From positions 1 through 64,000 of the forward strand of contig JADFSH010000005.1 in the NCBI GenBank assembly GCA_022560875.1: a stretch of 64,000 nucleotides of DNA. The letters are read 5' to 3'. Within the stretch, counting starts at the first letter, position 1; each line of letters opens with the position of its first letter. The stretch is from Planctomycetota bacterium. GTDB taxonomy: Bacteria > Planctomycetota > Phycisphaerae > Phycisphaerales > SM1A02. Under the pieces are notes generated by a model, which ran no database searches, was not told where the DNA came from, and worked only from the letters and a program-made list of their open reading frames with translations. Both the position numbers and the translations under genes were made by a program. Of this stretch, positions 44,945-63,955 are shown one piece after another.

Positions 44945-45463
44945 ATGCCCGTCTCCAAACCCAACTCGCAGATCATCTACGACGCGCTGAAGGCGTGTGA
45001 TATCAGAATTATCTCCGCCCTGCCGGAGACCTGGCTGGTGCATCTGATCCGCATGGGCGATGACGACCCGGACATGACGCTGGTTCGTCTCGCCAAGGAG
45101 GAGGAGGGGGTAGGCATCTCCGCCGGGGCGCATCTGGCCGGGGTCAAGTCCGCCATGCTCATGCAGAATCACGGCTTCCTCGCCTCCATCAACGCCATCG
45201 TCTCCTGCGCTCAGCTTTATCGCATCCCCCTGCTCATGATCATCAGCCATCGTGGATGGTTCGGTGAAAAGGATCCCTGGCAGACCGAGGGCGGGCTGGT
45301 GACCATACCCGTGCTTGAAGCGCTCGACATTCCTCATACCACACTCGATGATCCCGACACTGTCGAACTTCGGATTCACAAGGCTCAAACCCTTGCCGAA
45401 GCCTCCAGCCGACCCGTTGCATTGCTGCTCGATCGCGATCTGATGTGGGAGGATGACGCATGA
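44945..45463 (+). CDS. TPP-dependent decarboxylase, alpha (Pyr-domain) subunit
   Basis: 172 residues. It matches the alpha subunit of split thiamine-diphosphate enzymes such as sulfopyruvate decarboxylase ComD and phosphonopyruvate decarboxylase. The segment LAKEEEGVGISAGAHLAG carries the conserved Glu that activates the cofactor, and QNHGFLASINAIVSC is also typical. The start at 44945 (MPVSKPNS) is chosen over an upstream Met at 44915. Its stop overlaps the next start by 4 bases (ATGA), so the alpha and beta chains should be made in equal amounts. The substrate is probably a 2-oxo acid; which one is unknown. Confidence 0.85.
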   Translation: MPVSKPNSQIIYDALKACDIRIISALPETWLVHLIRMGDDDPDMTLVRLAKEEEGVGISAGAHLAGVKSAMLMQNHGFLASINAIVSCAQLYRIPLLMIISHRGWFGEKDPWQTEGGLVTIPVLEALDIPHTTLDDPDTVELRIHKAQTLAEASSRPVALLLDRDLMWEDDA

Positions 45464-46836
45464 AGCGACTTGATGCGCTCAATGCCATTTACCCGCAAAT
45501 TGAGCGTTGCGTGGTGGTCACGATCATGGGAGCGGTGTCCGCGGAATTGCAGTCCATCGGCCACAAGCCAAATTTCTTTTATCTCCAGCATGCGATGGGG
45601 CTGGCGTCCTCAATGGGACTGGGCATCGCCCTGGCCCGCCCGGAACTGAAGGTCGTGGTCCTCGATGGCGATGGCTCGGTCCTCATGAACCTCGGCGGCT
45701 ACACCACCCTGGCCCGCTACCACCCCCGGAATCTCCTGCATGTTGTTTTTGATAACGAAAGCCTCCTCTCGGTGGGCGGTTTTCCCACGGCGACCTCGAC
45801 GGGAAGCGATCTGGAGAAGATCGCAAAGGGGGCGGGGATCCCTCGGGCATCAACGGTACACAACCTCGAGGATTTCACCGCCGCATTCGATGAAGCGTTG
45901 AATGCCGATGAACTGACTTCCCTCATCGCCAAGGTCGAGGCGGTCGGCCCGGCGGCATTCGTCACCGACCTGCCCCTGCTGGAGAACCGTTTTCAATTCC
46001 AACGATGGCTGCGGGACGAGGCCCACACGATTGCCCGCAATAAAAAGGAGTCGGATGTGTCGAATGTGCTTACGCAGCTTGCCGAGGAACTGGCTTCGGG
46101 ATCATTAAAGGTGGTCGATCTCACCCAACCGCTTGGCCCGGATACGCCGGTGATCGGCCTCCCGCCGGAGTTCGCCCCGTCGCCGGGCGTGAGTATAGAT
46201 GAGATCTCGCGTTATGACGACAAGGGGCCAGCGTGGTACTGGAACATCCTCCGTTTCGGCGAACATACCGGCACGCACTTCGACGCCCCCGTTCACTGGG
46301 TCACGGGGAAAGATCTGCCCGACAATGCCTGCGACACCATCGACCCGAATCGATTCGTCGGCCCGGCGTGCGTCATCGACTGCGCCCTGGAATCGCAGGG
46401 CGATCCGGATTTCCTTCTCACCCCGGAGCGTATCGAGGAATGGGAGAGCGAGCACGGCAGCATTCCCGCCGGCTCGTGGGTTTTGCTGCGTACAGACTGG
46501 TCGAAACGAAGCGGCGCTGATTCGTTCATCAATGCCGACGATAACGGCCCCCACAGTCCGGGGCCGAACAAGGAAGCCGCCGAATTGCTGGCGATTGACC
46601 GCGATGTGCTGGGCTTCGGGGTGGAAACCATCGGCACGGATGCCGGGCAGGCCCATTCCTTCGACCCGCCCTTCCCTAATCACACCATCATGCATGGGGC
46701 GGGCAAGTTCGGCCTGGCGAGCCTGACCAACCTCGATCAACTCCCGGCCACCGGCGCGATCGTAATTGCCGCCCCCCTGAAAATAGTGAACGGCAGCGGC
46801 AGTCCCCTTCGAGTGCTGGCGATCACAAAGGCTTGA
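45460..46836 (+). CDS. Fusion of TPP-dependent beta subunit with a cyclase/hydrolase domain
   Basis: 458 residues. Residues 1 to about 190 are the PP domain of a TPP enzyme: LQHAMGLASSMGLGIALARP, then G70-D-G72-S followed by Asn99 in FDN, the GDG-x26-N cofactor motif. Residues about 205-458 are a PF04199-type cyclase domain with H269-T-G-T-H273-F-D275-A-P-V-H279, the metal motif of kynurenine formamidase and isatin hydrolase. The linker (about 190-205) is charged. Overlap with the alpha gene is 4 bases. One polypeptide thus joins ring or amide hydrolysis to 2-oxo acid decarboxylation. The domain calls are firm; the pathway is inferred. Confidence 0.87.
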   Translation: MKRLDALNAIYPQIERCVVVTIMGAVSAELQSIGHKPNFFYLQHAMGLASSMGLGIALARPELKVVVLDGDGSVLMNLGGYTTLARYHPRNLLHVVFDNESLLSVGGFPTATSTGSDLEKIAKGAGIPRASTVHNLEDFTAAFDEALNADELTSLIAKVEAVGPAAFVTDLPLLENRFQFQRWLRDEAHTIARNKKESDVSNVLTQLAEELASGSLKVVDLTQPLGPDTPVIGLPPEFAPSPGVSIDEISRYDDKGPAWYWNILRFGEHTGTHFDAPVHWVTGKDLPDNACDTIDPNRFVGPACVIDCALESQGDPDFLLTPERIEEWESEHGSIPAGSWVLLRTDWSKRSGADSFINADDNGPHSPGPNKEAAELLAIDRDVLGFGVETIGTDAGQAHSFDPPFPNHTIMHGAGKFGLASLTNLDQLPATGAIVIAAPLKIVNGSGSPLRVLAITKA

Positions 46837-49388: not shown

Positions 49389-51368
49389 ATGATGCAGCCA
49401 CATTGGAACCTCCCTGACGAATATGCGGCCATACCGCTGGACGCCACCGGGACTCCGGGATCGCTGCGCATTTGTGTGATCGTCCGTCGTGAGGCCGAGC
49501 CGATCGGAGGACATTTCATCTCCATCGCCAATCATCTGGACGCCAGAACCGTCCTGGGTTGTCTCGGTGATGCCGACGGGAATGTACATCAATGGCTGGA
49601 GATTTCGATCCAGGATGCCGATCGTATGGTCGAGTCGCTCTCCGCCTCTCGGCGGGTCTTGAACAATAAAATTCTCGATGAGCGTTGGAAGCGTCAGAGC
49701 ATTGCCGAAAACAATCCGCCCTACGGCCCCCTGCTGACCTGCGGCTGGGAGCAGAATCACCCTCCCCCCCTCCTGCTCGACCTCAAGAACTCCCGACCGA
49801 TCACCCCGACTGACATGACTTCGGGAGAGATCTGGCAACTCTGCGAAGATGACGCGGCGCTCAGTGGAGCGGGACTCGAACCCTACAGTTCATCGCTTCA
49901 TCGTTATCTCTGGCTTCCGAACCAGGCAGAAGAGTCAACCTTCCTTCCCGTCACCGCCAACGCGCCGACGAATGAGCGATGCGTCACCCCTGAGTCGGCC
50001 ATCAAGGACTATGCCGAACTCGAACCGCTTAATCTCGGGGGGGGGCTGCTGCGGGTGAGGGAATTTCTTCCTATCCGGTATGAAGCATTCAATGATGTTC
50101 TGAGCGGCGAAGCCTGGAAAGGCGTGCGTCACGGACGGATCGATATCGACCTGGGACAGAATCTCGAAAAGCTCAATACGGTGACCGATGATCACAAACT
50201 TGGCGACGGGTGGCTCTTTCAGGGACATCATGGTCGCTGGGGTCGTCTGGTGGAGACGCTGCATCTGAAGCTTCGCGCCCTCTCCAACGCCTTTGAATCG
50301 GTCCGCGAGACCGTCCGTCGTACTCAGACGCCTCTGCTGAATCTGGAAGCGGAAAGTTTCAATATCAGGATGGGCGAATTCGGCAGTGGATTGCCCTTTC
50401 TGTGGTCGGCGAAGACGGTACTCACCAATCCGGGCGAAGCGGTCGCCCTGCCGATCGAATCCAGTGAGCTTCAGTACTTCCTGCAACCGGACTCCGAGTC
50501 TTCTTCGATCTATCAACAGGCCTCAGCCATATCGCGCACCCGCGGGCGCGCGATGGTTCGCATCCGGGAACTGATCGCCGATTCGGAAACGGAATCAATC
50601 GTGGCGGGAACGCTGGTGACCCAGGAGCGTCTGGAGTTTGCCCGCAATGATCTTCTGTGGCTCCGTATGGAACTTAAAAAGGGGCACTTCGACCTCTTCG
50701 TGCATCTTGATGAATCGGAAGCCATGGCCGGCGGCGAATGGCGGTTCCGCACGATATCCCAGCATTTCTCGGAAGATGTGCGAGACATGCTCAAGGAGGC
50801 GACGGGCGTTCCCATTTCCGATGTCCGTTTCGAGATGCTCCCCCTGCTCAGCACCCCGTATGACCTTTATGCGCTGGCGGTGTTGGGAGTACGAACGCTA
50901 CTTGTGGACAAGGACAATTCACTTCCCATCGCGCTTGACGAAGTAATGAGCCTGGCCCGCCAGGTGGCGATCGAGCATGAGGAAAGCGTTTCGCTCCGGG
51001 ACCGCATCGACACCATTTTCCAGCGTGATCCCCGCTGGGGGGAAGTCATCGGGCCCCACCGCATCACCCACCGGCCCCTGACCCCGGAGGAAGCCCTGGA
51101 CCTCATCCCCAGCGAACTGTGGTACGACACGCTGGGCATGCTGGTGCGTCTCTTCCCCGGGGTGGGCGCCGACTCGATTTGTCGTGATTTTGCCGACGCA
51201 CCGATCGGAGGCATTCATCGGATCTTCGATCCCGCCATTCATGATCTTGGCGGCCTGCTTCTGCGTACCCGCAGTCTGATTGTGATAGACTGGCGATACA
51301 ATCGTGAGATTAATGCCATCATTCGCCGCTTCGCCACGGGTCATGAAGGGGCGATGCTGGTATCATGA
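49389..51368 (+). CDS. Unrecognised 659-residue protein heading the T6SS-like operon
   Basis: 659 residues, no signal peptide or membrane helix. The text is rich in acidic residues and Trp, with segments such as YFLQPDSESSSIYQQ and LRTRSLIVIDWRYNREINAI. No family recognised. It is not obviously TssB, C, E, F, G or A. AGGA lies 11 bases before the start. The gene lies immediately upstream of a lipoprotein and the rest of the T6SS-like genes, all on the same strand and close together, so it is likely a cytoplasmic accessory or baseplate-like component of that system. That role is an inference from position. Confidence 0.6.
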   Translation: MMQPHWNLPDEYAAIPLDATGTPGSLRICVIVRREAEPIGGHFISIANHLDARTVLGCLGDADGNVHQWLEISIQDADRMVESLSASRRVLNNKILDERWKRQSIAENNPPYGPLLTCGWEQNHPPPLLLDLKNSRPITPTDMTSGEIWQLCEDDAALSGAGLEPYSSSLHRYLWLPNQAEESTFLPVTANAPTNERCVTPESAIKDYAELEPLNLGGGLLRVREFLPIRYEAFNDVLSGEAWKGVRHGRIDIDLGQNLEKLNTVTDDHKLGDGWLFQGHHGRWGRLVETLHLKLRALSNAFESVRETVRRTQTPLLNLEAESFNIRMGEFGSGLPFLWSAKTVLTNPGEAVALPIESSELQYFLQPDSESSSIYQQASAISRTRGRAMVRIRELIADSETESIVAGTLVTQERLEFARNDLLWLRMELKKGHFDLFVHLDESEAMAGGEWRFRTISQHFSEDVRDMLKEATGVPISDVRFEMLPLLSTPYDLYALAVLGVRTLLVDKDNSLPIALDEVMSLARQVAIEHEESVSLRDRIDTIFQRDPRWGEVIGPHRITHRPLTPEEALDLIPSELWYDTLGMLVRLFPGVGADSICRDFADAPIGGIHRIFDPAIHDLGGLLLRTRSLIVIDWRYNREINAIIRRFATGHEGAMLVS

Positions 51369-51424
51369 ATCGACTCAGTTTTTCAAGTAGCACACCATCA
51401 CCATGTGTCAGGGAGACTCACTTC

Positions 51425-51958
51425 ATGAAAATCCACTGCCGAATCGTACGACTGGGCGTTCTGTCATTCGTCCTGATGTTCACCCTGGGCTGCAGCCATT
51501 CACCGACGATGGGCAAGTACACCTATCGTGTCACACTGGACAGCGCATTACTCGACAAAAACACAAATATGATGCCTTCCATTGAAGTCGATTTCGTCGG
51601 CGTCAATGAATCTGAAAGCGATCGCTGGATCGGTTATAATATTGACGACTACTTCACGCCGGGCAATCCGCAACGTGCAAATGCCGATCGCTACACGATG
51701 CCGTTCACAAACGATAAGTCTTCAGCCCAGACGCTTTCCGCCGGATCCAGCAACTGGAATAGTTGGCAGGGATCCGGCGCGAAAAACATGATCATTCTCG
51801 CCAGTATTCCCCTCTCCAGCAGCCAGTTTGCCGTCGATCCCCGCCGACTGGTACTCCCGCTGGACCGGGCGCGATGGGGACGCGGCATGACCATCGAGTT
51901 GTTGATCAAACCCAGCGGAATCGTGTTGATGACCGCCATGAGACCGGTGAAAGAATAA
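51425..51958 (+). CDS. T6SS-associated lipoprotein in the TssJ role
   Basis: 177 residues from 51425 (GGGAG lies 9 bases upstream). The signal ends in a lipobox LGC-S, giving a lipid-anchored Cys near residue 21. A beta-rich mature domain follows (YTYRVTLDSALLDKN, SIEVDFVGVNESESDRWIGY, AKNMIILASIPLSSSQF). TssJ is the outer-membrane lipoprotein that contacts TssM, and a small beta-sandwich lipoprotein in the same operon is what one expects. Direct similarity to TssJ is weak by eye. The frame also opens at 51365, overlapping the previous stop, but that start would bury the signal peptide. Confidence 0.6.
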   Translation: MKIHCRIVRLGVLSFVLMFTLGCSHSPTMGKYTYRVTLDSALLDKNTNMMPSIEVDFVGVNESESDRWIGYNIDDYFTPGNPQRANADRYTMPFTNDKSSAQTLSAGSSNWNSWQGSGAKNMIILASIPLSSSQFAVDPRRLVLPLDRARWGRGMTIELLIKPSGIVLMTAMRPVKE

Positions 51959-51985: not shown

Positions 51986-54900
51986 ATGAATGAGTACGGC
52001 GATTTTCGGATTGTCGAACCGATTCATAGTGACGGGCTGGTCACAACGTACCACGCAAGCAAACTTGGGGCCGATGGTTCGGAGTTGTTTGTTCTGAGGG
52101 TCTATCGACCTCCCGACGCCATCATGGGATCGCCGCGCGCCGCGATGGACATGGTGAGGTTTCTCGAGGCCGGGATTTCTCATCGGGAAGCCGCGAAAGA
52201 CGCTCGGTTCATCGTCAGCGTTCATGATCACGGCAAGGCCCACGGCGGCGCCTATATCGTCACCGACGGATATCGCTACACCCTCCAGTCACTGATCGAT
52301 TACCGCATCCGACTTTCTGCGGATGACCTTCGATCGTTGGTGGAAAAAATCATCCGAGGCTTGATTGAATACCAATCGAAGGCCTTACAGCCCCACGACA
52401 ATCTCATCGCCTCGACGGTCATGCTGAATGGGATGCAAGACCTCACGTCATCGCATGTGGCTCTTGCCGAGCCCGGAATGCCGACTGCTGATGTTGCTGA
52501 GAACCCAAGTGTGGACGCTGCGGCTCTGGGTCGATTGATACACGCCCTGGTCGAATTCCGGCCCGCTTGGGCGCCGATTCGCTGGCCGGTCCCCCCGTCC
52601 GACGCGTGGAGGAAGTTGGGTCGCAGCGGCGAGCACTGGCGGGAACTGACCAATCGCCTGCTCGATCCCAATGCCGCCGAGAACGGTGATGACCTCGATC
52701 TTGAGGACATTCTGAGAAGTCTTCCGATCGAGCCCCGGGATTACAGGAAACCGATCGGCCTTTCCGCGGCGGCGATCGTCATCGCCGCCCTGGGTGGATT
52801 TCTGTTCTGGCAATTCTTTTACGATCCGCTCATCAGCGAAAATGAGGTCAGGCCGCTGAGGGACAACATCACTTACGTCAGCAAGGAGCATCAGGCCTGG
52901 CTGACTGATTTCAAAGACTCGGTAAGGGATGATGATCCTCTTGCCGACTTCCTCGAAGAGGCCGACCTCAAGGACGATGTGGCATACCTCGATGAAAATG
53001 TGCTCGGTAAGATCAGGAAAGCAGAAGGCAAGACGTATTTTGATTCGAGGAATTACTTTCCAGACAATCCAACAAACTGGGGCAATCTCGATCAATACGT
53101 CAATGGTGAGAGTGTTGATTTGACACTTTTCACACGCAGCCAGTTTGAAGAGATCGAGGATATCAGTGAACTCATCCAGAAACTTCGGAAAGATTTCCTT
53201 GAATGGAAAACAAAAGCGTTTTCAACTTCCGTGCAGAAGTTTGCTGAACGGAATTGGAATAAGGCAAGCGAATCGCTCCAGCACGAGATCGGTGATGACG
53301 GTGACCCTCCCCGTATCGAGCAACTGAAGAATCTGCTGGAAGCCCGACGGCATCTTTTGGCCATCGACAGTTTGTGGGATCACATTGATAACGTCTATCA
53401 GGACGTTCCGGTAAACGGCCAGGATGTCCTGCGTCGTTTTCAGCCGATTATGCAGGATCTGATGGCCCCGCTGAACTCCGTCGAAGCAATTCATACGGAA
53501 CTCGCTAAGGAAAAGAATAAGGATCTGGTTGCGCGTATGTTGGGGATCGCCCGCGATGAAGACCCCAAGATCGAGTGGGTTCTTTTTGAGAAAGATGTCG
53601 GTCCGCCGGCTGAAGATACCTTTGAGGCGTTCGATGCCTGGTCGCGAGAGGCGGATCAGTACCGGCGCCTCCCCCCGGAAACCCGGATTGACAAGCAACA
53701 ATATCTCACTGATCTTAAGACGCTTCGGGATAACATCGGCTACCTGATGGATTTTGAAGCTACCGAGGAAGCTGAAAGATTCCGGCGTAATCAACAGGCT
53801 GTCGAAACCGCCTTCCAGTTGACCAGGGAACTTGACCGCATCATAAAGAACGAATCCCAACTCGACGGTGCGGTCAATGAAGTCCTGAAATTGGCAACCT
53901 ATGCCGAGGATTGCGAGGAGCAATATCGCATCGTGGCCATTCCCGCGAACGAATACTTGGATGAACAGCGGCTTCTGAGTTACCAATCGACCTCTCTGGT
54001 TTCGTCATGGAACAACGCAATCGATTCGGTGGGATCGGCGGCGACTCTGGACAGTGATCGAAAAAAGTATGGTGCCGCCCGCAAGCGCCTGAAAGGGACA
54101 CAAGCGATCTTCCAGCATCTGGACGAGACGGCGCTTTCGATTCAGCCCGAGGACTTGCCGGTACGATCCTCGGGCTGGGACCCGGATGTCGCGCTGGGCA
54201 TTCTGAGTCAGAAAAGGGAACTGGCCATCGGCCGGGTTGCCCGCAAGGTCGAGTCCAGCGATTCCCCGCCGACTCTCGAAACGACTGAGATTGTCCAAAC
54301 CCTCGAAAGTGAAGAAAACATCTTCGGCGACTGGTACGGACAGGCCCAGAGGATGTTCACGTGCTACCTCAAAATCGAGCGGATGTTCGATGAGGGACAC
54401 CGCCCGGATGAACCGGATCAGGCCAGTGGCGAAACGGTCCTTTCCCTCGTCAGTGAATGGGAAACGGATCAATCAGAGTCCAGCGCGCTGCTCCGGGAAT
54501 TCAGACCCGCGCTGACGGGAATCATCGACCGCATCGACCTGAGCCGAAATGTGATGAAATTAGACAACCCCCAGGAAGTGATGTCCATCGTCGAAGGACG
54601 CGATCCTTCAGTACAGCCTGAATTGTATCGCACCGCGTGGAACCGGCTGGGTGAGCTTGCGGATGCGAATCATGTCACCGCGATCCATCAAGATCATCAG
54701 CTTCTGGTGGCGATCACCGGATGGCTGGAATCGTTTGACGGAAATCCGGAACGCCAGCAGTTCGTGAAGGACAGTCTTGAGAGCGAAGCGCATGATCGCT
54801 GGGTTTCCCGAATGCAAAAACGACCCTTGCCCGCCGATGACAAGGATGAGGAATTGGAACAGTATGAAGCGGCGCTTCAACTCTACGAACCATTCCACGT

Positions 54901-56278
54901 CAGAACCGGCGATCTGGCAACTTGGCTGCAATGGAACCTCAATATCTCCAGGTTCCGCTCCGAGATGAAGGAGATGGACAAGGAAGTTCAGCATGAAGTC
55001 GCCGCCCGAAAGGCAGTTACTGATTTGCAGTCTGGCTTTGACGCTTTCGGACCCGAAATCACGGGACTCGATTCCATCAAGACGATGACTGAAGAACTCA
55101 TCCTGATCGCCAATGAAGAGAAGACGACGGTTGACTTCAATGTGATCGGGCCGGCCGGCACCGATCTTCGCTGGACCTATGACATGGATCAGGAAGTTCG
55201 CAACGAGGAGCGCCCAAACTATCCGCCCAAGGAGATCGTGTATTACTACATACCACCGCGCCAGAAGAAAATTGAGTTGCGATTCAAACTTCTCGATCGA
55301 GACAAGCATTCTGATCTGTCAGATCACGTTTATGTCAGCACGGAAGAAGTGTCATTCAAAATGTTCAAGCGTGTCGCTGAACATCCGAAGCACATGAAGT
55401 ATCTTGAAAATATGATCGAACTCGGGATTGGCAATGATGATGGTCGAGATGGTCCGCACGTCTGGGAGCAGGCCCAGGCCGTGCCACAAGGCATGATCGC
55501 GCTGAAGGCCCCCAGCCAATGGCTAGTGGAAGATCCCAGTCGACCTACCCCGGATCAGGGACCACGTCTTCTGCCGAGTCTCGATCATCCGGTCCAACAT
55601 GTTTCAGCAATTGTCGCCATGTATGTCGCCAACGTCTTCGGCTGTCGACTGCCGACGACCGATGAATTTAAGGCGGCAATCGTGGAACAATACGGCGATC
55701 TGGATTTCACCGAATTACTGAACAAGATCAACAGCAATAATTTCGCAGGCCACATCCCTAATCTCAGGGACTCGAATTTCACCAAGTACCTGGACTTTGC
55801 CGTGACGGAAATGGCTGAAGAGAGGAAACTAAAATACTTCTCTCCGGAAAACGGAGCCTTCCTCCCTGATCCGGATCGGGATCATTCATATCCATTCAAT
55901 GATAACAATCTCTGGTTTGATCACACCAGAGCCGAAATCGGCAACGGGTTTCAGCATCTGTACGGCAACGTGCAGGAGTGGGTGTATGATGATCCCGACT
56001 CGGTAACGCCCGCCGAGGACGAGCCGCTCTTGTCCCCGCAGGAGATTCTCCGCAATCTCAAGATAAAGTATCTTGGCGTAATCGGGGGCTCGGCGCTCTC
56101 CTCGACCCTGTTATCGCCTAGCGAACGCCAAGATGCCGAGGATCTTGTTATCCCCGAGGATCTCCTCAAGATGACCTATGCCGATGTTGGTTTCCGACTC
56201 GTCATCGCGGGCAAGTTCGACACCGTCGCCCAGCAGGTGCTCGCCGCGACGAGCAGGGGTTATGTCAATCTCAATTGA
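51986..56278 (+). CDS. Pseudokinase - membrane helix - helical stalk - FGE-like domain protein
   Basis: 1430 residues. Residues 1 to about 245 have a protein-kinase-like layout but lost every catalytic feature: the VAIK lysine reads FVLRVY (Arg38), the HRD loop reads LQPHDNLIASTVML, and DFG reads AEPG (161-164). A membrane helix lies at about 257-278 (IGLSAAAIVIAALGGFLFWQ). A helical region of about 850 residues follows. The C-terminal about 250 residues resemble the formylglycine-generating-enzyme/sulfatase-modifying-factor fold: YVANVFGCRLPTTDEFKAAI, HLYGNVQEWVYDD, VIGGSALSS and ending DVGFRLVIAG. The FGE active-site Cys pair is not seen. GAGAGG lies 8 bases before the start. It probably links cytoplasmic signalling to the envelope part of the T6SS. 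Confidence 0.75.
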   Translation: MNEYGDFRIVEPIHSDGLVTTYHASKLGADGSELFVLRVYRPPDAIMGSPRAAMDMVRFLEAGISHREAAKDARFIVSVHDHGKAHGGAYIVTDGYRYTLQSLIDYRIRLSADDLRSLVEKIIRGLIEYQSKALQPHDNLIASTVMLNGMQDLTSSHVALAEPGMPTADVAENPSVDAAALGRLIHALVEFRPAWAPIRWPVPPSDAWRKLGRSGEHWRELTNRLLDPNAAENGDDLDLEDILRSLPIEPRDYRKPIGLSAAAIVIAALGGFLFWQFFYDPLISENEVRPLRDNITYVSKEHQAWLTDFKDSVRDDDPLADFLEEADLKDDVAYLDENVLGKIRKAEGKTYFDSRNYFPDNPTNWGNLDQYVNGESVDLTLFTRSQFEEIEDISELIQKLRKDFLEWKTKAFSTSVQKFAERNWNKASESLQHEIGDDGDPPRIEQLKNLLEARRHLLAIDSLWDHIDNVYQDVPVNGQDVLRRFQPIMQDLMAPLNSVEAIHTELAKEKNKDLVARMLGIARDEDPKIEWVLFEKDVGPPAEDTFEAFDAWSREADQYRRLPPETRIDKQQYLTDLKTLRDNIGYLMDFEATEEAERFRRNQQAVETAFQLTRELDRIIKNESQLDGAVNEVLKLATYAEDCEEQYRIVAIPANEYLDEQRLLSYQSTSLVSSWNNAIDSVGSAATLDSDRKKYGAARKRLKGTQAIFQHLDETALSIQPEDLPVRSSGWDPDVALGILSQKRELAIGRVARKVESSDSPPTLETTEIVQTLESEENIFGDWYGQAQRMFTCYLKIERMFDEGHRPDEPDQASGETVLSLVSEWETDQSESSALLREFRPALTGIIDRIDLSRNVMKLDNPQEVMSIVEGRDPSVQPELYRTAWNRLGELADANHVTAIHQDHQLLVAITGWLESFDGNPERQQFVKDSLESEAHDRWVSRMQKRPLPADDKDEELEQYEAALQLYEPFHVRTGDLATWLQWNLNISRFRSEMKEMDKEVQHEVAARKAVTDLQSGFDAFGPEITGLDSIKTMTEELILIANEEKTTVDFNVIGPAGTDLRWTYDMDQEVRNEERPNYPPKEIVYYYIPPRQKKIELRFKLLDRDKHSDLSDHVYVSTEEVSFKMFKRVAEHPKHMKYLENMIELGIGNDDGRDGPHVWEQAQAVPQGMIALKAPSQWLVEDPSRPTPDQGPRLLPSLDHPVQHVSAIVAMYVANVFGCRLPTTDEFKAAIVEQYGDLDFTELLNKINSNNFAGHIPNLRDSNFTKYLDFAVTEMAEERKLKYFSPENGAFLPDPDRDHSYPFNDNNLWFDHTRAEIGNGFQHLYGNVQEWVYDDPDSVTPAEDEPLLSPQEILRNLKIKYLGVIGGSALSSTLLSPSERQDAEDLVIPEDLLKMTYADVGFRLVIAGKFDTVAQQVLAATSRGYVNLN

Positions 56279-56473: not shown

Positions 56474-57397
56474 ATGAGTAACCTCAGTGGGGAAACCTCA
56501 AAACTTGTCATCGCCACGGCGAACCGGCTGAGGCTTGTGCAGACGGATCTCGCCGATGAAGATCCCGAGGTCCGTCAGCAGTATCTCGCTGATGAACTGG
56601 AGCGGGCCCTCACCAAAATAATTCCGGCGGATCGAGCCGGTTTCATGGCATCGCTTCAGGAATGGTTTCCCACGTGGGAGCGAGTGGAGCTTTCCGGTAG
56701 TTCGGAGGAGGGTATGGGACAATCAGCTGCCGATGAACGAGATCTCCGAGACGCCAGCTTTCTCGTGGATCGACTGATCGATATCGCACCGACGCTTTCC
56801 GAGCAGGAACGCGAAGCCGTGGCAGCAAAGCTGCGCGATGCGGGCCTTTCCACGGCCGGACGTCAGGTCTGGCCGGAGCATGCCGCGGAGAAACTGCGGG
56901 CTCACCTGAAAATCCCCGAGGGAACGGAGCTTGATCCCATTCGAACCGTGGAACTGCTCCAACTCCAACTTGAGTTCACGCTCAGCCTCGACCAACTGGT
57001 CTGGAGCACCTGGAAAGCCATCTCCCCGCGGTCGGACATCAGAGGCGCCGGGGAGCTCAAGAAGACGATCTCCCCGTATCTCCAGGGCGACCAGGATGTG
57101 GCGCGAGGCGAGGTCAAGATGCATCTGGAAAAACTCCGCCAGCTCACCGCCGCCCTCATATCCGCCATCAGCCAGACGGGACGCCAGTTTGCGCAGCAGC
57201 ATTATGCTCGCTTCAATCCTGACAATATTGAAGACGCCGCCAAACAGGAGAAAAAGGCTCTCGAAAATCTCGGAGTGGCCGCCTGGCGAAAGTACAAGGA
57301 ACTCCTGGGAACAACGGATCAAGCGACCATCGAGAGGGAGATCATGCAGTTGATCGCCGAGTATGCTGACCGACTGATGAAAGGATTGAGCCACTGA
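56474..57397 (+). CDS. T6SS FHA-protein C-terminal-like protein, lacking an FHA domain
   Basis: 307 residues, cytoplasmic, all helical by appearance. The C-terminal half (about 130-270) resembles the C-terminal domain of T6SS FHA-domain proteins (TagH/ImpI/Fha type), which ends with a run like AAL...LLARFDP. Here it is ISAISQTGRQFAQQHYARFN followed by PDNIEDA. No FHA domain (GR...SRxH) is present. Fha proteins link phosphorylation to T6SS assembly. In this operon the pseudokinase protein stands two genes before TssK, so this protein may be its partner. The call is tentative. Confidence 0.45.
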   Translation: MSNLSGETSKLVIATANRLRLVQTDLADEDPEVRQQYLADELERALTKIIPADRAGFMASLQEWFPTWERVELSGSSEEGMGQSAADERDLRDASFLVDRLIDIAPTLSEQEREAVAAKLRDAGLSTAGRQVWPEHAAEKLRAHLKIPEGTELDPIRTVELLQLQLEFTLSLDQLVWSTWKAISPRSDIRGAGELKKTISPYLQGDQDVARGEVKMHLEKLRQLTAALISAISQTGRQFAQQHYARFNPDNIEDAAKQEKKALENLGVAAWRKYKELLGTTDQATIEREIMQLIAEYADRLMKGLSH

Positions 57398-57416: not shown

Positions 57417-58793
57417 ATGACCAACACAAGCCAAGTTCACTGGTATGAAGGACTCTTTCTGCAACCTCACCATTTGCAGCAGATGCAGAGCAATCTGCTG
57501 AATAATTTCACCGCGGAGCGACGATCTTCACGCCCCTACCCCTACGGGTTGCTGGATTCCCGAATCTCCAATGATGGCCTGGAAAACATGCTGGTTCAGT
57601 TTGATCGCCTCCACGTCATCATGCCCAGCGGAATCGAGCTGAACTACCCAGGAAACACAAGTCTCCCACCCCTGAACATCAAGGAACGATTCAGCTCCAG
57701 CGGTGACGCAATCAATATTCTGCTGGGCGTTCCTCTCTGGTATGCCGAGCGCGGTAATTCGATAGAACCGTCCAGTGAAGACGACTGGCGCGCCAAACGC
57801 ATATACAAGGTCGTGGAAATCGAACGTCCGGATGAAAATACCGGCGAGAACACTCAACCGATGCTGATAAGGCAATACAACGCGCGGTTGATGTTCGAGG
57901 ATGACGACCGGACGGACATGGAGGTGCTTCCCCTGCTCCGCATCGTCCATGCCGCAGGGGAGAGTGTCGGTTTGCCCGCCCAGGATCCAAGTTTTCTTCC
58001 TCCCTGCCATCTGCTCACCGGCAGCCCGACGCTCAGAGATCTTGTTCGCGACCTCACCAACCAGGTGGAAGCCAGCCGGCGCGAGCTTGTCGTGCAGATG
58101 ACGAGGGCGGGTTTCAGCGTGGATGCCATGCGGGGACCGCAGTTTCAACAGATGCTTCGCCTCAAGACGCTCAATCGGTTCAGCGCCAGGTTGCCATCTC
58201 TGGTCGAGGCGCCCGCCATAACCCCGTTTGAGATTTATCTCGAACTGCGTGAACTTCTGGCCGAACTCGCCGCGCTTCATCCCGATCGCGATCTGTTTGA
58301 AGTGCCTCCCTATGACCATGACCAACCTGCCGTGGCGTTCCTGGATCTGGCGGAGAAGATTCGCGGAATGCTCAAGCCTTTGAAGGGTGACGTATTCCAG
58401 AAGGCGGCCTTCACGAGAGACGGTCCCATACTCGCGGCCACGCTCTCTGACGATAACCTCAACATTCCCAACGAGTACTATCTCGGCATCAAATCCCGTA
58501 TGGACCCGCGAGAAATCTCCACCCTCATCGAGGATGAGGATAAATTCAAGCTCATGGCCAAATCCATGTGGCAGAACAGGATTCGCGGCGTCAAGATCGT
58601 TGAAGAGCGACATCCGCCCCTTCAGTTTCCTGCGGAAACAGGCCTTCACTACTACCGGCTCATGCGGGATGAAAGCAAGAGAATGTGGGAGCGTATTGAG
58701 CAGGAGAAGATCATCGCCCTCTGGTGGCCGGACCTTGAGACGTCTGATTTCAACGTGACCCTATATATGACCATCCCGGAAGGGAGTGGATAA
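57417..58793 (+). CDS. tssK: Type VI secretion baseplate protein TssK
   Basis: 458 residues. The N-terminal motif HWYEGLFLQPHHLQQMQ is the TssK signature, and the rest has the expected length (about 440-460 residues). TssK is a trimeric adaptor that joins the baseplate to the TssL/TssM membrane complex. Further family-like text includes AARLPSLVEAPAITPFEIYL-type and PLQFPAETGLHYYRL segments. It is followed 3 bases later by TssL, and TssL overlaps TssM, the classic K-L-M order. Confidence 0.9.
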   Translation: MTNTSQVHWYEGLFLQPHHLQQMQSNLLNNFTAERRSSRPYPYGLLDSRISNDGLENMLVQFDRLHVIMPSGIELNYPGNTSLPPLNIKERFSSSGDAINILLGVPLWYAERGNSIEPSSEDDWRAKRIYKVVEIERPDENTGENTQPMLIRQYNARLMFEDDDRTDMEVLPLLRIVHAAGESVGLPAQDPSFLPPCHLLTGSPTLRDLVRDLTNQVEASRRELVVQMTRAGFSVDAMRGPQFQQMLRLKTLNRFSARLPSLVEAPAITPFEIYLELRELLAELAALHPDRDLFEVPPYDHDQPAVAFLDLAEKIRGMLKPLKGDVFQKAAFTRDGPILAATLSDDNLNIPNEYYLGIKSRMDPREISTLIEDEDKFKLMAKSMWQNRIRGVKIVEERHPPLQFPAETGLHYYRLMRDESKRMWERIEQEKIIALWWPDLETSDFNVTLYMTIPEGSG

Positions 58794-58796
58794 CCC

Positions 58797-59513
58797 ATGT
58801 CGCTGCTAGTCGTTTGTGAACCGGTTTTTCAATACGTGTGTCGCTTGAACCGTTCCGCCCGGAAAGGTGGGCAGATCGATTCGGTTTCGGTCCGCAACTC
58901 GGTTCTCACTATCCTGGAAGATGCTGAAAAAACCGCAGGTACGGATCCCGATCTTCTCGCGCAATTCGAGAAAATCAAGATGCCCCTGTTATTCTTCATC
59001 GACTACATGATCAAGGAGAGTACGCTTTCCTTTGCCGATAGCTGGGATGAAATCGCCCGAGAGTATGGCGAACATGCGGGTGATGAGAAATTTTATGACC
59101 TGCTTGATGAAACTCTCGAGGAAAACACCCCCGCGGCAAACGAGCGGCTGAGTGTCTTCTACACCTGCCTGGGACTCGGCTTTACGGGTTTCTATACCGG
59201 CCAGCCCGAATATCTCCGTCGTAAAATGACGGAAATATCCGGACGTATTCGCCAGATGATGGACATTGATGAGACAATACCGCTCTGCCCGGAAGCCTAT
59301 GAGCATGTGGACACCAGTGACCTGATAGAACCGCCGGCCAAGAAGCTGGTGGGAATCGGGATCCTCATGGTCGGGATGATCCTCGTTGTCTTCGCCGTCA
59401 TCATCACGCTGTTTGTGCAAAGCAAGAGTGATTTGGGCAAATCGCTTGATTCCATCATCGAACAATCATCCGCGCAGAACACCACTGATGTCGTCAAGGA
59501 GCAGAATCCATGA
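58797..59513 (+). CDS. tssL: Type VI secretion membrane protein TssL (DotU family)
   Basis: 238 residues. The DotU/TssL fold appears in order: a helical N-terminus (LVVCEPVFQYVCRLNRSARK), FFIDYMIKESTLSFADSWDE, DEKFYDLLDETLEE, and LSVFYTCLGLGFTGFYTGQP. A C-terminal tail-anchor helix lies at about 185-207 (VGIGILMVGMILVVFAVIIT). TssL binds TssM in the inner membrane and TssK in the cytoplasm. No C-terminal peptidoglycan-binding (OmpA-like) extension is present. GGAAGGGAG precedes the start. The stop overlaps tssM by 4 bases. Confidence 0.92.
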   Translation: MSLLVVCEPVFQYVCRLNRSARKGGQIDSVSVRNSVLTILEDAEKTAGTDPDLLAQFEKIKMPLLFFIDYMIKESTLSFADSWDEIAREYGEHAGDEKFYDLLDETLEENTPAANERLSVFYTCLGLGFTGFYTGQPEYLRRKMTEISGRIRQMMDIDETIPLCPEAYEHVDTSDLIEPPAKKLVGIGILMVGMILVVFAVIITLFVQSKSDLGKSLDSIIEQSSAQNTTDVVKEQNP

Positions 59514-62500
59514 AAAACATGGGAACTCCAATGAAAATTGTTCTCGGACTGGTCGCCGTACTGATCCTGATCGGATTGATCTGGTTCGTGGTTGGTTTCA
59601 ATCTGTGGGCCCTGCTTATTCTGATTGTGGGAGTGATCGTCGTTCTGGTCATCTTCCTGATGTTTCTGGGTTTACTGAAGTGGCTTCAGAAACGAAAATC
59701 CGATCCGTTCGAGCGAGAACTGGCCAGCAATACCGGCGCGGTTCCAGGTGGTGTCACCGAAGCGTCCAGCCGGGCCCGGCTGGACGACCTGAGACAGAAA
59801 TTCGAGCAGGGCATCGAAACCTTCCGCGCGAACGGCAAGGATCTCTACAGCCTTCCCTGGTATGTCATCGTTGGTGAGCCCGGCTCCGGAAAAACCGAAG
59901 CGTTGCGACACTCAAACATAGGCTTCCCCCCGGGCCTGCAGGATGAACTCCAGGGATCGGGCGGCACCATTAATATGGACTGGTGGTTCACAAACCACGC
60001 GATCATTCTGGATACGGCAGGGCGACTCCTTTTCGATGAGGCGTCCACCACCTCGAATCCCGAATGGACGGAATTCCTCAAGCTCCTGCAGAAGCATCGC
60101 ACCAATTGCCCCATCAACGGGCTCATGCTGGTGATTCCTGCCGACAGCCTCATCCGCGACACCGCCGATGAGATTCATGAGAAAGGCGGGCGCATCGCCC
60201 GTCAATTGGACCTGATCCAGCGCACCCTGGGCGTTCGATTTCCCGTGTTCATCCTGATCACAAAGAGCGATCTCATCAACGGTTTCCGTGAATTCTTTGA
60301 TGAACTCAGCGATCCGCAACTGCAGCATCAGATCATGGGCTGGTCGAACCCCGGTAACCTCGATGATCCCTTCGATCCTGAGGATGTGATCGATCACATC
60401 TACACCGTGCAGGAACGGCTCGAGCGCCGGCGACTCGGACTTCTGCTTGATCCCGTTAGCAAAGAAGGGGCCATGTCGAGAAGGACCGACGAAGTCGATG
60501 CGATGTTTGCCTTTCCCGAGAGCATCACCGGCGTCGTGCCACGATTGCGACGATATCTCGAACTCATATTTGTCAGTGGCGAATGGTCATCCAAACCGCT
60601 GTTCCTGCGGGGCATCTATTTCGTGTCCGCCATGCGGGAAGGGTCCGCCCTGGACGCGGACCTGGCGGAAGTGCTGGGCGTGCCGGTCGAGCAACTGCCC
60701 GAGGGTCGCATCTGGGAGCGCGATCGCAGCTTTTTCCTCCGCGACCTCTTCCTGAAGAAGATATTCCGCGAGCGGGGGCTCGTGACGCGAACCTCCAACA
60801 CGTCCCAACTCAAACGCAAGCGAAGAATTATCCTCATAGGTACGGGCATTGCCGCCAGTCTGCTGCTGCTGGGCTTGACCATGCTTCAAATCCAGAAACT
60901 GAACAAGACCATTGTTCAGCCTCAAAAAATATGGGAGACAGCTGCGAATATCTATACTCAGCCGGCCGATGGTGACACGTTTCCCGTCATTGTCGGCGGA
61001 TTCCAAAATCATAATGCCGATGAAAAACTGGTCTATCTCGGCAATCAGCCTGCAGACTTGAAATACGGCTTTACCCTTGAGGATGGAACCAATGCCACGA
61101 TTAGCAAGGCCACCGAGGAAATTAACCGGCAGGTTAAGCGTCGCATCACGGTGCCGTTATTGTTCCGTCCAGTCAACTTGTTTTTGCGGGGATCAAGCAA
61201 GAATCTCTTAGACGCCAAACGGCTCGATGCCGGCAGGGTGATTTTTGAACTCAGCGTGCTGCACCCTCTCACCAGCAGAGCCTTGAAGGGAATGGCTAGT
61301 ACCGATCCGAAGGATCTCTGGTCGCCCGCTGCAACCGCGGCATTGACGGAGTTGCTCCGCATCTACGCTCTGAATGATGAAAGCCTGGTCCGATCAGAGA
61401 AAATCAATCTCGCCCCTCTGTTTGAGTATGTCCTCAGACCTTCATCTACAGAAACCAGGGATGACACCGCCTTCAAGGAGGCGGCCCAGGACATTGAGGG
61501 ACTACAGGCAACGTTTGATGCGTTGTACAACAACCGGCTTTCGAGTGATCGATGGCCTGGTAAAATATTCGACAGTAATCATCCCCCTGTGGCCCGCAAC
61601 CTCTCAACGGGCATCGACCGATTTGTCGCCTTTGTCGTAAATATATGGAAAGGCGAAGGTGAAGGTGAAGGCGAATTCATGGAAGCGATTCGGGGGGGTC
61701 TCGCTCTGGATAAGTTCAGTCGAGTTGAGAAGGAACTGTGGGATACCTACGCCCCCGATGAAGAAAAAGCCCCGCGCATGGATCTTACCGATTGGGTAAG
61801 GCTGTATCCCCAACTTGGCATTAACAGGCCCGGTTATCCGCATAGCACACTCTCCAATATCCTGCCTAAATTACAAAATAGGGATTTTTCCGATTGGTAT
61901 ATGGAGATCGTTGAGGAAGGGCAAGCCAGACTCAAGGCCAATTATGATGCCATGATCGGGATCATGCCTCTCCTTCCCGATGACGATGTGGAGACATCTG
62001 ACGATACTGTCATTCATAGTTCCCTGCTGGGATTCAAAAGGCAGCTCGAAAAAGAGCGAACCACCTTTGAAGGGATGCTGGACCCGGAAGTGGAACGTGA
62101 GCGGATGACAATTTTGCAGAATGATCTGTTTGGCACCAACCCGCGAAGCCAACAACGCGCTTTCGCGGAGCGGGCGGGAATGTACGCCGAAGTCGAGAAA
62201 CATCGATTACTCACTCGGACCTCCTCGAACCTCGTTGCCTTGTCCAACTCGATTTTTTCCATGAAGTCGGACTCGGAACGGCTCACATCGGAATTTGTGA
62301 CCCACCGCACCGCCAATCGTGAAGATCGAATCAATCGCACGGTGAACGTGGCGACTCATGTCCTTTCCCTCGCCGATAGTGATCAGACGGAAGGCCTGGT
62401 CGCCGAAACGCTGCGCACATCGAGTCCCCCCCAATCCCCACGCGAGGTCGAGGAACTGGTCGCCCTGATCGTCGAGCAAAGTCCGAATTATGAACCCTTT

Positions 62501-63955
62501 TCGTGCCCTCGCCTGGAAATGACCGTCTGGGCGGATGGCAACGCGACGTTGAACACGGATTACCACCATGAGGCGGCCCCCGCGTGCCTCGACATGCTGA
62601 TTCACATAGAAAATCATCTCCGTCTTCGATCCGCCTCACCGGCGGAGGCGGAAGCCGTGCGTCGCGCGCGTCACAATTACATCCGTAATTATCTTGCCCA
62701 CTGGAAGACCCTCCTCCGGGACGGTCGTTTGTTCAAGGAATACGACGGTGACTGGCGACAGTTTCGAAATGATCTCAATTTCGCCTACAGCACAGTGAAT
62801 GAAAAGCTACGCCAGCTCGCCCTGCAGCGACGTGATGCGATCGACGCCCTGCCCCGCACCGATGACTGGACCCCCGATCTGGTCCAGGAACGGGATGACA
62901 CGATCCAATGGATCGAAATGGACCTCACTGCCCTCAGCCCGAGCCCCGCCTTCGATCGCAAATGCGGAAAATGGTTCGACAGTTGGCGCAAGGACCGCAC
63001 CGGATCCTTTGATTTCGATCGTCGGAGTATTCTTCAACTCGATTCCACCGACTTCCTCGAGGGCTTTCTTTCGTTGTATGGCGCAGCGTCCAACGAACAC
63101 TACGTCGATTTTTGGCGATCTCTCACTGACTCAGGACTGAATGTGCTTGCCCAGGCCAGTGAGAAGAAGACCGACGAAGCCCATGCCGTCCTGCAGGATC
63201 TCCGGTGGTTCCCACTGGCCCCGCTTCATGAAAATGCGAATCTCGATCAACTCGGCGAGATCAACTCACCCGAGCAGCGAATCCTGAGTTGGGAGGATGT
63301 CCTGCAGGCGCGTGAAGCGATGCAGAATATTCGCCCCGAAAACACGTCCGGAGACGACGGGGTCGGTAGGTATGCAGAAGGGGAAATAGGCAATCCGGGC
63401 ACTGATTTCAAGGTAGCCGAGATCGACAATGCCCTGGGCAAGATTCGCGGCAAACGGATGACCCCCGATGAGCGAAGGCGATTTGACAGTCTCTCGGCAC
63501 TTCTTCGCGCCCTGCCCAGCGATCCCAAAGCCCCGCCCCTGAACTGCAAACTCACCTACCTTGGGGAGAAAGAGGCGACCGGGGGGCGATCGCTGATTTG
63601 CCTGCCGCTACCCCTGCTGCGTCTGGAACGCCACCGGAATGGCAATGTCCAGAGCAATCCGTACCGCCTCGACCGGCGCAACAAGGCCCTGGCGACGGCG
63701 TTGTATCCCGGTGGCGACAAGATTGTGCTGGTCTTCGGCACAACCGAGCAGGCTGGCGAGGAGGTCCCCATCGAGATCAACGGCCCGTGGTCCGTCCTCG
63801 CCCTTCTTCACAAATTCCAGGGGCAACGGACACCGGAAAATCCGCTGATCTGGCAAGTTGAAATGATCGTCCCTTACAAAAATTCCTCATTATCGTTTTG
63901 GCTGCAACTCGAATTCGACACGCAGTTTCCAACTCTTGATGAGTGGCCACAATAA
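59510..63955 (+). CDS. tssM: Type VI secretion membrane protein TssM (IcmF family)
   Basis: 1481 residues, larger than the usual 1100-1300. N-terminal helices lie at about 7-29 and 33-58, and a third at about 439-460. The cytoplasmic domain between them has Walker A G122-EPGSGK-T129, Asp168 in ILDTAGRLLF, and TKSDLI, as in IcmF GTPase-like domains. The periplasmic part of about 1000 residues ends in a beta domain (PYKNSSLSFWLQLEF) typical of TssM C-termini that contact TssJ. A GGY-GAA hexamer repeat at about 61653-61676 gives GEGEGEGE. Together with TssJ-like, TssK and TssL proteins it forms the T6SS membrane core. Confidence 0.93.
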   Translation: MKNMGTPMKIVLGLVAVLILIGLIWFVVGFNLWALLILIVGVIVVLVIFLMFLGLLKWLQKRKSDPFERELASNTGAVPGGVTEASSRARLDDLRQKFEQGIETFRANGKDLYSLPWYVIVGEPGSGKTEALRHSNIGFPPGLQDELQGSGGTINMDWWFTNHAIILDTAGRLLFDEASTTSNPEWTEFLKLLQKHRTNCPINGLMLVIPADSLIRDTADEIHEKGGRIARQLDLIQRTLGVRFPVFILITKSDLINGFREFFDELSDPQLQHQIMGWSNPGNLDDPFDPEDVIDHIYTVQERLERRRLGLLLDPVSKEGAMSRRTDEVDAMFAFPESITGVVPRLRRYLELIFVSGEWSSKPLFLRGIYFVSAMREGSALDADLAEVLGVPVEQLPEGRIWERDRSFFLRDLFLKKIFRERGLVTRTSNTSQLKRKRRIILIGTGIAASLLLLGLTMLQIQKLNKTIVQPQKIWETAANIYTQPADGDTFPVIVGGFQNHNADEKLVYLGNQPADLKYGFTLEDGTNATISKATEEINRQVKRRITVPLLFRPVNLFLRGSSKNLLDAKRLDAGRVIFELSVLHPLTSRALKGMASTDPKDLWSPAATAALTELLRIYALNDESLVRSEKINLAPLFEYVLRPSSTETRDDTAFKEAAQDIEGLQATFDALYNNRLSSDRWPGKIFDSNHPPVARNLSTGIDRFVAFVVNIWKGEGEGEGEFMEAIRGGLALDKFSRVEKELWDTYAPDEEKAPRMDLTDWVRLYPQLGINRPGYPHSTLSNILPKLQNRDFSDWYMEIVEEGQARLKANYDAMIGIMPLLPDDDVETSDDTVIHSSLLGFKRQLEKERTTFEGMLDPEVERERMTILQNDLFGTNPRSQQRAFAERAGMYAEVEKHRLLTRTSSNLVALSNSIFSMKSDSERLTSEFVTHRTANREDRINRTVNVATHVLSLADSDQTEGLVAETLRTSSPPQSPREVEELVALIVEQSPNYEPFSCPRLEMTVWADGNATLNTDYHHEAAPACLDMLIHIENHLRLRSASPAEAEAVRRARHNYIRNYLAHWKTLLRDGRLFKEYDGDWRQFRNDLNFAYSTVNEKLRQLALQRRDAIDALPRTDDWTPDLVQERDDTIQWIEMDLTALSPSPAFDRKCGKWFDSWRKDRTGSFDFDRRSILQLDSTDFLEGFLSLYGAASNEHYVDFWRSLTDSGLNVLAQASEKKTDEAHAVLQDLRWFPLAPLHENANLDQLGEINSPEQRILSWEDVLQAREAMQNIRPENTSGDDGVGRYAEGEIGNPGTDFKVAEIDNALGKIRGKRMTPDERRRFDSLSALLRALPSDPKAPPLNCKLTYLGEKEATGGRSLICLPLPLLRLERHRNGNVQSNPYRLDRRNKALATALYPGGDKIVLVFGTTEQAGEEVPIEINGPWSVLALLHKFQGQRTPENPLIWQVEMIVPYKNSSLSFWLQLEFDTQFPTLDEWPQ
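61652..61676. repeat. Hexanucleotide tandem repeat in tssM
   Basis: Four GGY-GAA units in tandem encode Gly-Glu repeats. In-frame unit changes would lengthen or shorten the loop without breaking the gene. Confidence 0.7.

What the first reader, a model, noticed from the sequence alone, without database searches (positions are those of the whole stretch)
51986..56278. Pseudokinase tethered to an FGE-like domain within a T6SS locus
Known T6SS control uses an active kinase (PpkA) and FHA protein. Here the kinase fold has lost Lys, HRD and DFG residues, spans the membrane, and carries a long helical stalk with an FGE-like domain that lacks the active Cys. Kinase-FGE pairing recalls chlamydial Pkn1. 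It may be a sensor without catalysis.
Basis: partly seen in the sequence, partly recalled or inferred. Interest (0 to 1): 0.7.

Follow-up and report, generated by a model that had tools for sequence, protein, structure and literature searches.

The report
Dead-kinase receptor controlling type VI secretion
In one branch of planctomycete bacteria the toxin-injecting type VI machine carries, in place of its usual signalling kinase, a long membrane protein whose kinase end has lost its catalytic residues and whose outer end looks like an inactive enzyme, so its firing may be controlled by shape change or protein binding rather than by phosphorylation.

Summary
The 1,430-aa ORF (51986-56278, +) has an N-terminal protein-kinase fold (AlphaFold pLDDT 85; Foldseek E about 1e-10), one TM helix (residues 257-275), a roughly 800-residue stalk without recognisable domains and a C-terminal FGE/SUMF1-like domain (Pfam E 5e-8) lacking the FGE cysteines. 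It sits directly upstream of tssK-tssL-tssM. I found 21 further homologues, nearly all Planctomycetota (mostly Phycisphaerae), nearly all in one gene order: 659-aa protein, lipoprotein, pseudokinase-FGE, ~310-aa protein, tssK, tssL, tssM, TagF-like. None of the 21 readable kinase domains keeps Lys + HRD-Asp + DFG-Asp together. About half keep the beta3 Lys and an Asp, so some may still bind nucleotide; the window copy lacks both. The ~310-aa neighbour remotely resembles the C-terminal domain of T6SS Fha without its FHA domain, and no canonical kinase or FHA gene adjoins these T6SS islands in the four best-assembled relatives. In one genome TagF, another T6SS regulator, carries the same TM-stalk-FGE ectodomain. 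Best reading: a phosphorylation-free receptor in the PpkA position; function is inferred. Kinase-FGE fusions as such are ordinary; the T6SS use, family-wide loss of catalysis and exchangeable head appear new.

The parts
49389..51368 (+). 659-aa conserved protein of unknown fold, first gene of the conserved block
   Evidence: 47% identical to the G145 copy; its family was used to find 20 loci; no Pfam, NCBIfam or PDB match; AlphaFold pLDDT 71 and no convincing fold match
51365..51958 (+). Lipoprotein (TssJ-like by position only; true start perhaps 51425)
   Evidence: lipobox-type start; conserved between the 659-aa gene and the pseudokinase in nearly all loci
51986..56278 (+). Pseudokinase-TM-stalk-FGE protein, 1430 aa
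51986..52735 (+). N-terminal kinase-fold domain (about residues 1-250), cytoplasmic by topology
   Evidence: AlphaFold and Foldseek; family profile against PDB
52097..52099 (+). beta3 lysine position: Arg38
52394..52402 (+). HRD position: His137-Asp138-Asn139 (catalytic Asp replaced by Asn)
52466..52474 (+). DFG position: Ala161-Glu162-Pro163
52754..52810 (+). Single transmembrane helix (residues 257-275)
   Evidence: hydropathy and charge bias, one TM at the same place in all homologues that reach it; AlphaFold helix 258-279
52841..55150 (+). Long stalk (about residues 286-1055), periplasmic by topology
   Evidence: no Pfam domain; secondary structure not predicted
55313..56215 (+). FGE/SUMF1-like C-terminal domain (about residues 1110-1410)
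   Evidence: PF03781; PDB profile best hits SUMF2 1y4j and FGEs
56084..56101 (+). GGSALS motif in the region where FGE enzymes have their catalytic cysteines
   Evidence: the FGE cysteine motif itself is from general knowledge
56474..57397 (+). 307-aa protein; C-terminal part distantly related to the Fha C-terminal domain, no FHA domain
   Evidence: PF20232 hits 2 of 6 family members, best 5.2e-4, not the window member itself; hhalign 85-90% probability, E about 2e-6 to 6e-6, reversed control 0.4%
57417..58793 (+). tssK
   Evidence: PF05936 E 1.3e-64
58797..59513 (+). tssL (DotU)
   Evidence: PF09850 E 2.1e-22
59510..63955 (+). tssM-like 1481-aa inner-membrane protein
   Evidence: size, order and conservation; not itself run against Pfam. 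The TagF-like gene follows just outside the window, contig C83 64007-64963

Best explanation
It is a membrane receptor in the position that the kinase PpkA holds in other T6SSs, working without phosphotransfer. The FGE-like domain on the periplasmic stalk binds a ligand or an envelope/T6SS partner (inferred; TagR acts on PpkA as a separate protein). That binding, passed through the single TM helix (inferred), changes the conformation or clustering of the cytoplasmic pseudokinase, which acts as a docking platform for the FHA-less Fha-like protein, TssL/TssM and TagF and so licenses or blocks assembly of the membrane complex and baseplate (inferred). Shown here: kinase fold, loss of the catalytic set across the family, topology, FGE-like domain without its cysteines, conserved gene order with the Fha-C-like gene and tssKLM, and one TagF carrying the same ectodomain.
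For: Kinase fold. 0 of 21 homologues keeps Lys + HRD-Asp + DFG-Asp, while kinase-FGE fusions elsewhere in two of the same genomes keep HRDIKPxN and DFG, so the loss is specific to the T6SS lineage. Order 659-aa / lipoprotein / pseudokinase-FGE / Fha-C-like / tssK / tssL in 12 of 13 named loci whose held DNA reaches tssK. All five TssK-bearing genomes of the window's class in the sample have it. The neighbour resembles the Fha C-terminus without FHA, whereas other planctomycete T6SSs have an FHA-bearing Fha near tssK. No PF00069 or FHA gene next to the islands of G311, G384, G368; the nearest kinase in G095 is about 19 kb past tssC; no PP2C_2 hit in those four genomes. TagF-TM-stalk-FGE fusion in G384. 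Literature: TagR activates PpkA, probably through its periplasmic domain (PMC6082577), and TagQ/TagR are needed for TssK assembly (PMC6657622); PpkA binds TssW in the envelope and Fha foci form without Fha phosphorylation (PMC12607579); TagF represses through Fha independently of phosphorylation (PMC5995506).
Against: No biochemical or genetic data. About half the homologues keep the beta3 Lys and a DFG-position Asp, so some may bind nucleotide or have residual activity. In A. citrulli active PpkA is required and kinase-dead PpkA binds Fha less well (PMC12607579). The Fha-C match is remote. L117 has the cluster without this gene, so it is not essential. The TagF fusion is seen in a single genome. 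The sensory role of the FGE-like domain rests on analogy.
Confidence: 0.5

Rival explanations
1. Nucleotide-sensing pseudokinase: in the lineage with Lys + HGN + KxxN + DP the domain binds ATP without transferring phosphate (HER3-like, from general knowledge), and nucleotide binding is the switch; the window copy is a later, more degenerate derivative.
For: beta3 Lys in 12 of 22; of 21: HRD-Asp replaced by Asn in 10, catalytic-loop Lys in 9 and Asn in 10, DFG-position Asp in 11.
Against: The window copy and the Glu/Arg lineages (10 of 22) lack the Lys yet keep architecture and gene order; the DFG Phe is absent in all 21.
Confidence: 0.2
2. Structural scaffold of the T6SS envelope complex rather than a sensor: the stalk bridges the periplasm and the FGE-like domain docks on the lipoprotein or outer membrane.
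For: Very long ectodomain (full-length proteins of 1340-2104 aa); gene order with lipoprotein and TssLM; a TM-stalk-FGE paralogue without a kinase head in L112 and a TagF-headed one in G384.
Against: L117 keeps the cluster without it, so it is not a core structural part; the heads are regulator-type domains.
Confidence: 0.2
3. Atypical but active kinase (for example WNK-like displaced Lys).
For: Top Foldseek hits are WNK3 and WNK1; relatives retain parts of the active site.
Against: HRD Asp absent in 19 of 21 and the DFG motif in 21 of 21; no FHA reader in the cluster and no PP2C_2 hit in four genomes.
Confidence: 0.06
4. Ordinary planctomycete kinase-FGE gene that decayed and sits by T6SS genes by chance.
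For: Kinase-FGE fusions occur elsewhere in these genomes.
Against: Intact long ORFs in the same position in about 20 genomes of divergent planctomycetes.
Confidence: 0.02

Closest known systems
PpkA (T6SS Thr kinase of the TPP pathway; P. aeruginosa, S. marcescens, A. citrulli)
   Same: N-terminal kinase fold, one TM, C-terminal periplasmic domain, encoded with tss genes and an Fha-type gene
   Different: Catalytic residues lost across the family; ectodomain is a long stalk plus FGE-like domain; the Fha-like partner lacks FHA
TagR (periplasmic activator of PpkA in P. aeruginosa)
   Same: Periplasmic factor acting on the T6SS kinase-type regulator; FGE/SUMF1-like family by memory only
   Different: Here the FGE-like domain is part of the same chain; homology to TagR could not be tested
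Chlamydia trachomatis Pkn1 and other kinase-FGE fusions
   Same: Kinase plus C-terminal FGE-type domain in one protein (PMC3581485)
   Different: Examples in these genomes are catalytically intact and most have short linkers; no T6SS link; no ~800-residue stalk
SUMF2 / pFGE
   Same: FGE fold; best PDB profile hit (1y4j); natural paralogue without FGE activity (from memory)
   Different: Soluble eukaryotic protein
TagF (ImpM)
   Same: Downstream gene of the same cluster; in G384 fused to the same TM-stalk-FGE ectodomain
   Different: Free-standing in the other clusters where it was seen; below the Pfam cut-off here, identity rests on hhalign and position
T6SS Fha C-terminal domain (PF20232)
   Same: Remote similarity of the 307-aa neighbour and a position just before tssK
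   Different: FHA domain absent

Membership tests
Protein kinase superfamily (fold) | Bilobal kinase fold | tested here: met
Active Ser/Thr kinase | beta3 Lys, HRD Asp and DFG Asp | tested here: not met
   R38, HDN, AEP in the window; 0 of 21 homologues complete; control fusions keep HRD and DFG
PpkA / TPP pathway | Membrane-anchored kinase encoded in the T6SS cluster | tested here: inconclusive
   position and topology met, catalytic residues not met
PpkA / TPP pathway | FHA-containing Fha partner | tested here: not met
   Fha-C-like neighbour without FHA; no FHA gene at the islands of the well-assembled relatives
PpkA / TPP pathway | PppA-type phosphatase | tested here: inconclusive
   no PF13672 hit in G368, G384, G095, G311; two hits in G000 on contigs other than the T6SS one; other phosphatase families not searched
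FGE-sulfatase (PF03781) superfamily | Score above the gathering threshold | tested here: met
   33.4 bits versus 23.3
Formylglycine-generating enzyme | Active-site cysteine pair | tested here: not met
   GGSALS and no conserved cysteines in that region
TagR | Sequence or fold homology to PA0071 | not testable with these tools
Pkn1-type kinase-FGE architecture | Kinase fold plus FGE in one chain | tested here: met
   the architecture is also found in L154-L157
Type VI secretion locus | tssK, tssL, tssM adjacent; tssC in the genome | tested here: met
   TssM by size, position and conservation

The most novel reading that the evidence does not exclude
A T6SS post-translational switch rebuilt without phosphorylation: pseudokinase receptor, FHA-less Fha and TagF, with the TM-stalk-FGE ectodomain serving as an exchangeable input module placed on either of two regulators, the PpkA-like head or TagF.
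Probability: 0.4. Interest if true: 0.75.

Novelty: new variant of a known kind. Interest (0 to 1): 0.6.

Why it matters
Post-translational control of T6SS firing is understood mainly as Thr phosphorylation (PpkA, Fha, PppA). A conserved lineage that keeps the layout but has lost kinase catalysis and the FHA reader would separate scaffolding from catalysis in that pathway and give a natural test of whether recruitment alone can trigger assembly. It would also be a bacterial receptor pseudokinase with a defined machine to read out. I found no paper on it in the held library.

Tried and rejected
(1) The 659-aa protein as a second pseudokinase, suggested by eye: no Pfam or PDB profile match, and the AlphaFold model (pLDDT 71) has no kinase among the 50 listed fold matches; not supported. 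(2) The G134 hit: FGE-like motif only, in a fragment on a contig with no tss gene seen; dropped. (3) Direct comparison with TagR: sequence and paper not available. (4) The first hhalign of Fha against the 307-aa family was spoiled by three wrong-strand ORFs; redone cleanly. (5) Other divergent and one canonical planctomycete T6SS loci carry no homologue of either domain. (6) Stalk repeats: self-BLAST of the G145 stalk found none beyond the identity hit. (7) Kinases near canonical planctomycete T6SSs: output truncated, inconclusive. (8) The MAFFT alignment of three full-length proteins misplaced the N-terminus of G145; domain-wise alignments were used instead.
Full report
Check of the observation. 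The window holds an uninterrupted 1,430-aa ORF at exactly 51986-56278. Pfam finds only the FGE-sulfatase domain (E 5e-8, residues 1116-1232). The N-terminus has no Pfam hit on its own, but a six-member family profile finds bacterial and eukaryotic kinases in the PDB (StkP E 2.7e-6), two members hit Pkinase, and the AlphaFold model of residues 1-285 (pLDDT 84.8) matches kinases with E about 1e-10 and TM about 0.6. A single TM helix follows at 257-275, at the same place in all homologues that reach it, mostly with positive-inside flanks.

Relatives. A search with the whole protein found few. The more conserved 659-aa gene upstream found G368, G384 and G311 and then 20 named loci. These are MAG contigs labelled Planctomycetota or Phycisphaerae groups, apart from one labelled only 'bacterium' and one labelled Cyanobacteria, the latter probably misbinned. 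Of 19 loci whose DNA continues downstream, 18 carry the pseudokinase gene and L117 lacks it. Two of these (L107, L114) are the same contigs as G145 and G384, so 22 distinct proteins were compared, one of them a short fragment.

Conserved gene order. 659-aa protein, lipoprotein, pseudokinase-FGE, ~310-aa protein, tssK, tssL, tssM, then a TagF-like gene. Twelve of 13 named loci that reach tssK have the pseudokinase between the lipoprotein and the Fha-like gene. In G311 the first three genes lie about 30-40 kb from tssK. In the 392-genome phylum sample 82 have TssK; all five of them in the window's class, plus G145, carry the gene, whereas the 19 other planctomycete T6SS loci fetched did not show it (in G033 only the lipoprotein was found).

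Catalytic residues. Over 22 sequences the beta3 Lys position is K in 12, E in 7, R in 3. Over 21 sequences the HRD Asp position is N in 10, D in 2, other in 9; the DFG Asp position is D in 11, and the next residue is Pro rather than Phe in 20. No sequence has Lys, HRD-Asp and DFG-Asp together. The window is among the most degenerate (R, HDN, AEP). As a control, four kinase-FGE fusions elsewhere in G095 and G145 have intact HRDIKPxN and DFG. The loss is therefore specific to the T6SS lineage, and the ancestral state of that lineage may have been an HGN/DP pseudokinase able to bind nucleotide (inference).

FGE domain. The best PDB profile hits are SUMF2 and FGEs. The FGE cysteine region reads GGS-A/S-x-S in most of the 19 C-termini, and no cysteine column there is conserved. 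A ligand-binding role is inferred; FGE-type enzymatic activity is unlikely.

Partners. The 307-aa neighbour is related at a distance to the Fha C-terminal domain (PF20232, best family member E 5e-4; hhalign 85-90%, reversed control 0.4%) but has no FHA domain, whereas Fha genes in other planctomycete T6SSs have one and lie near tssK. Near the islands of G311, G384 and G368 there is no Pkinase- or FHA-family gene, and in G095 the nearest kinase is about 19 kb beyond tssC. PP2C_2 phosphatases were not found in those four genomes; only this one phosphatase family was searched. The TagF-like gene scores below Pfam cut-offs but matches a TagF profile (hhalign 83%, E 9e-6).

Exchangeable head. In G384 TagF is fused in frame to a TM, a stalk and the same FGE-like domain (1,506 aa; family FGE profile E 1e-44). 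In the seven other loci where a TagF-like gene was seen it is about 300-345 aa, in G145 cut by the contig end. L112 has a second TM-stalk-FGE protein without a kinase head directly after the pseudokinase gene. The ectodomain thus looks like a module attached to T6SS regulators; this rests on one fusion and one paralogue.

Mechanism. PpkA is activated through its periplasmic domain, by TagR in P. aeruginosa and RtkS in S. marcescens (PMC6082577), with TagQ and TagR needed for TssK assembly (PMC6657622). In A. citrulli PpkA binds the outer-membrane protein TssW, forms foci, and Fha foci form without Fha phosphorylation, although catalytically active PpkA is still required (PMC12607579). TagF represses through Fha without phosphorylation (PMC5995506). 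A receptor that has kept recruitment and dropped catalysis fits these facts. Shown here: anatomy, conservation, residue losses, neighbours. Inferred: ligand, signal transfer, binding partners, effect on assembly.

Limits. The stalk was not modelled, TagR could not be compared, most relatives are MAGs, and absence of kinase, FHA and phosphatase genes was judged by Pfam family searches in a few genomes.

Noticed in passing
L153:1982-6502 (G384 contig C5, about 218982-223502): TagF fused to TM, stalk and the same FGE-like domain (1506 aa), a second T6SS regulator on this ectodomain.
   Followed up: partly
L112:18069-21863: TM-stalk-FGE protein (1265 aa) without a kinase head directly after the pseudokinase-FGE gene.
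   Followed up: partly
L117:9956-21424: The same T6SS cluster with Fha-like gene, tssKLM and TagF-like gene but no pseudokinase-FGE gene.
   Followed up: partly
window 49389-51368: 659-aa family strongly conserved with this T6SS (43-51% between several genomes), no known family; a remote relative (604 aa) sits by the canonical T6SS of G188.
   Followed up: partly
L116 (RHKP01000012.1): A contig labelled Cyanobacteria carries this planctomycete T6SS cluster; probably misbinned.
   Followed up: no
window 45460-46836: One ORF joins a TPP-enzyme C-terminal domain (sulfopyruvate/phosphonopyruvate decarboxylase type) to a putative cyclase domain.
   Followed up: no
G000:C34:23659-24519, also in G368 and G384: A second, divergent TssC (VipB) homologue besides the high-scoring one.
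   Followed up: no
L007:3477-9791 (G145): The stalk is about 650 residues longer than in the window and repeats a motif near residues 559 and 1248 (WLxxAxxYYxLxPDP-like); protein length varies widely in the family (1340-2104 aa).
   Followed up: partly
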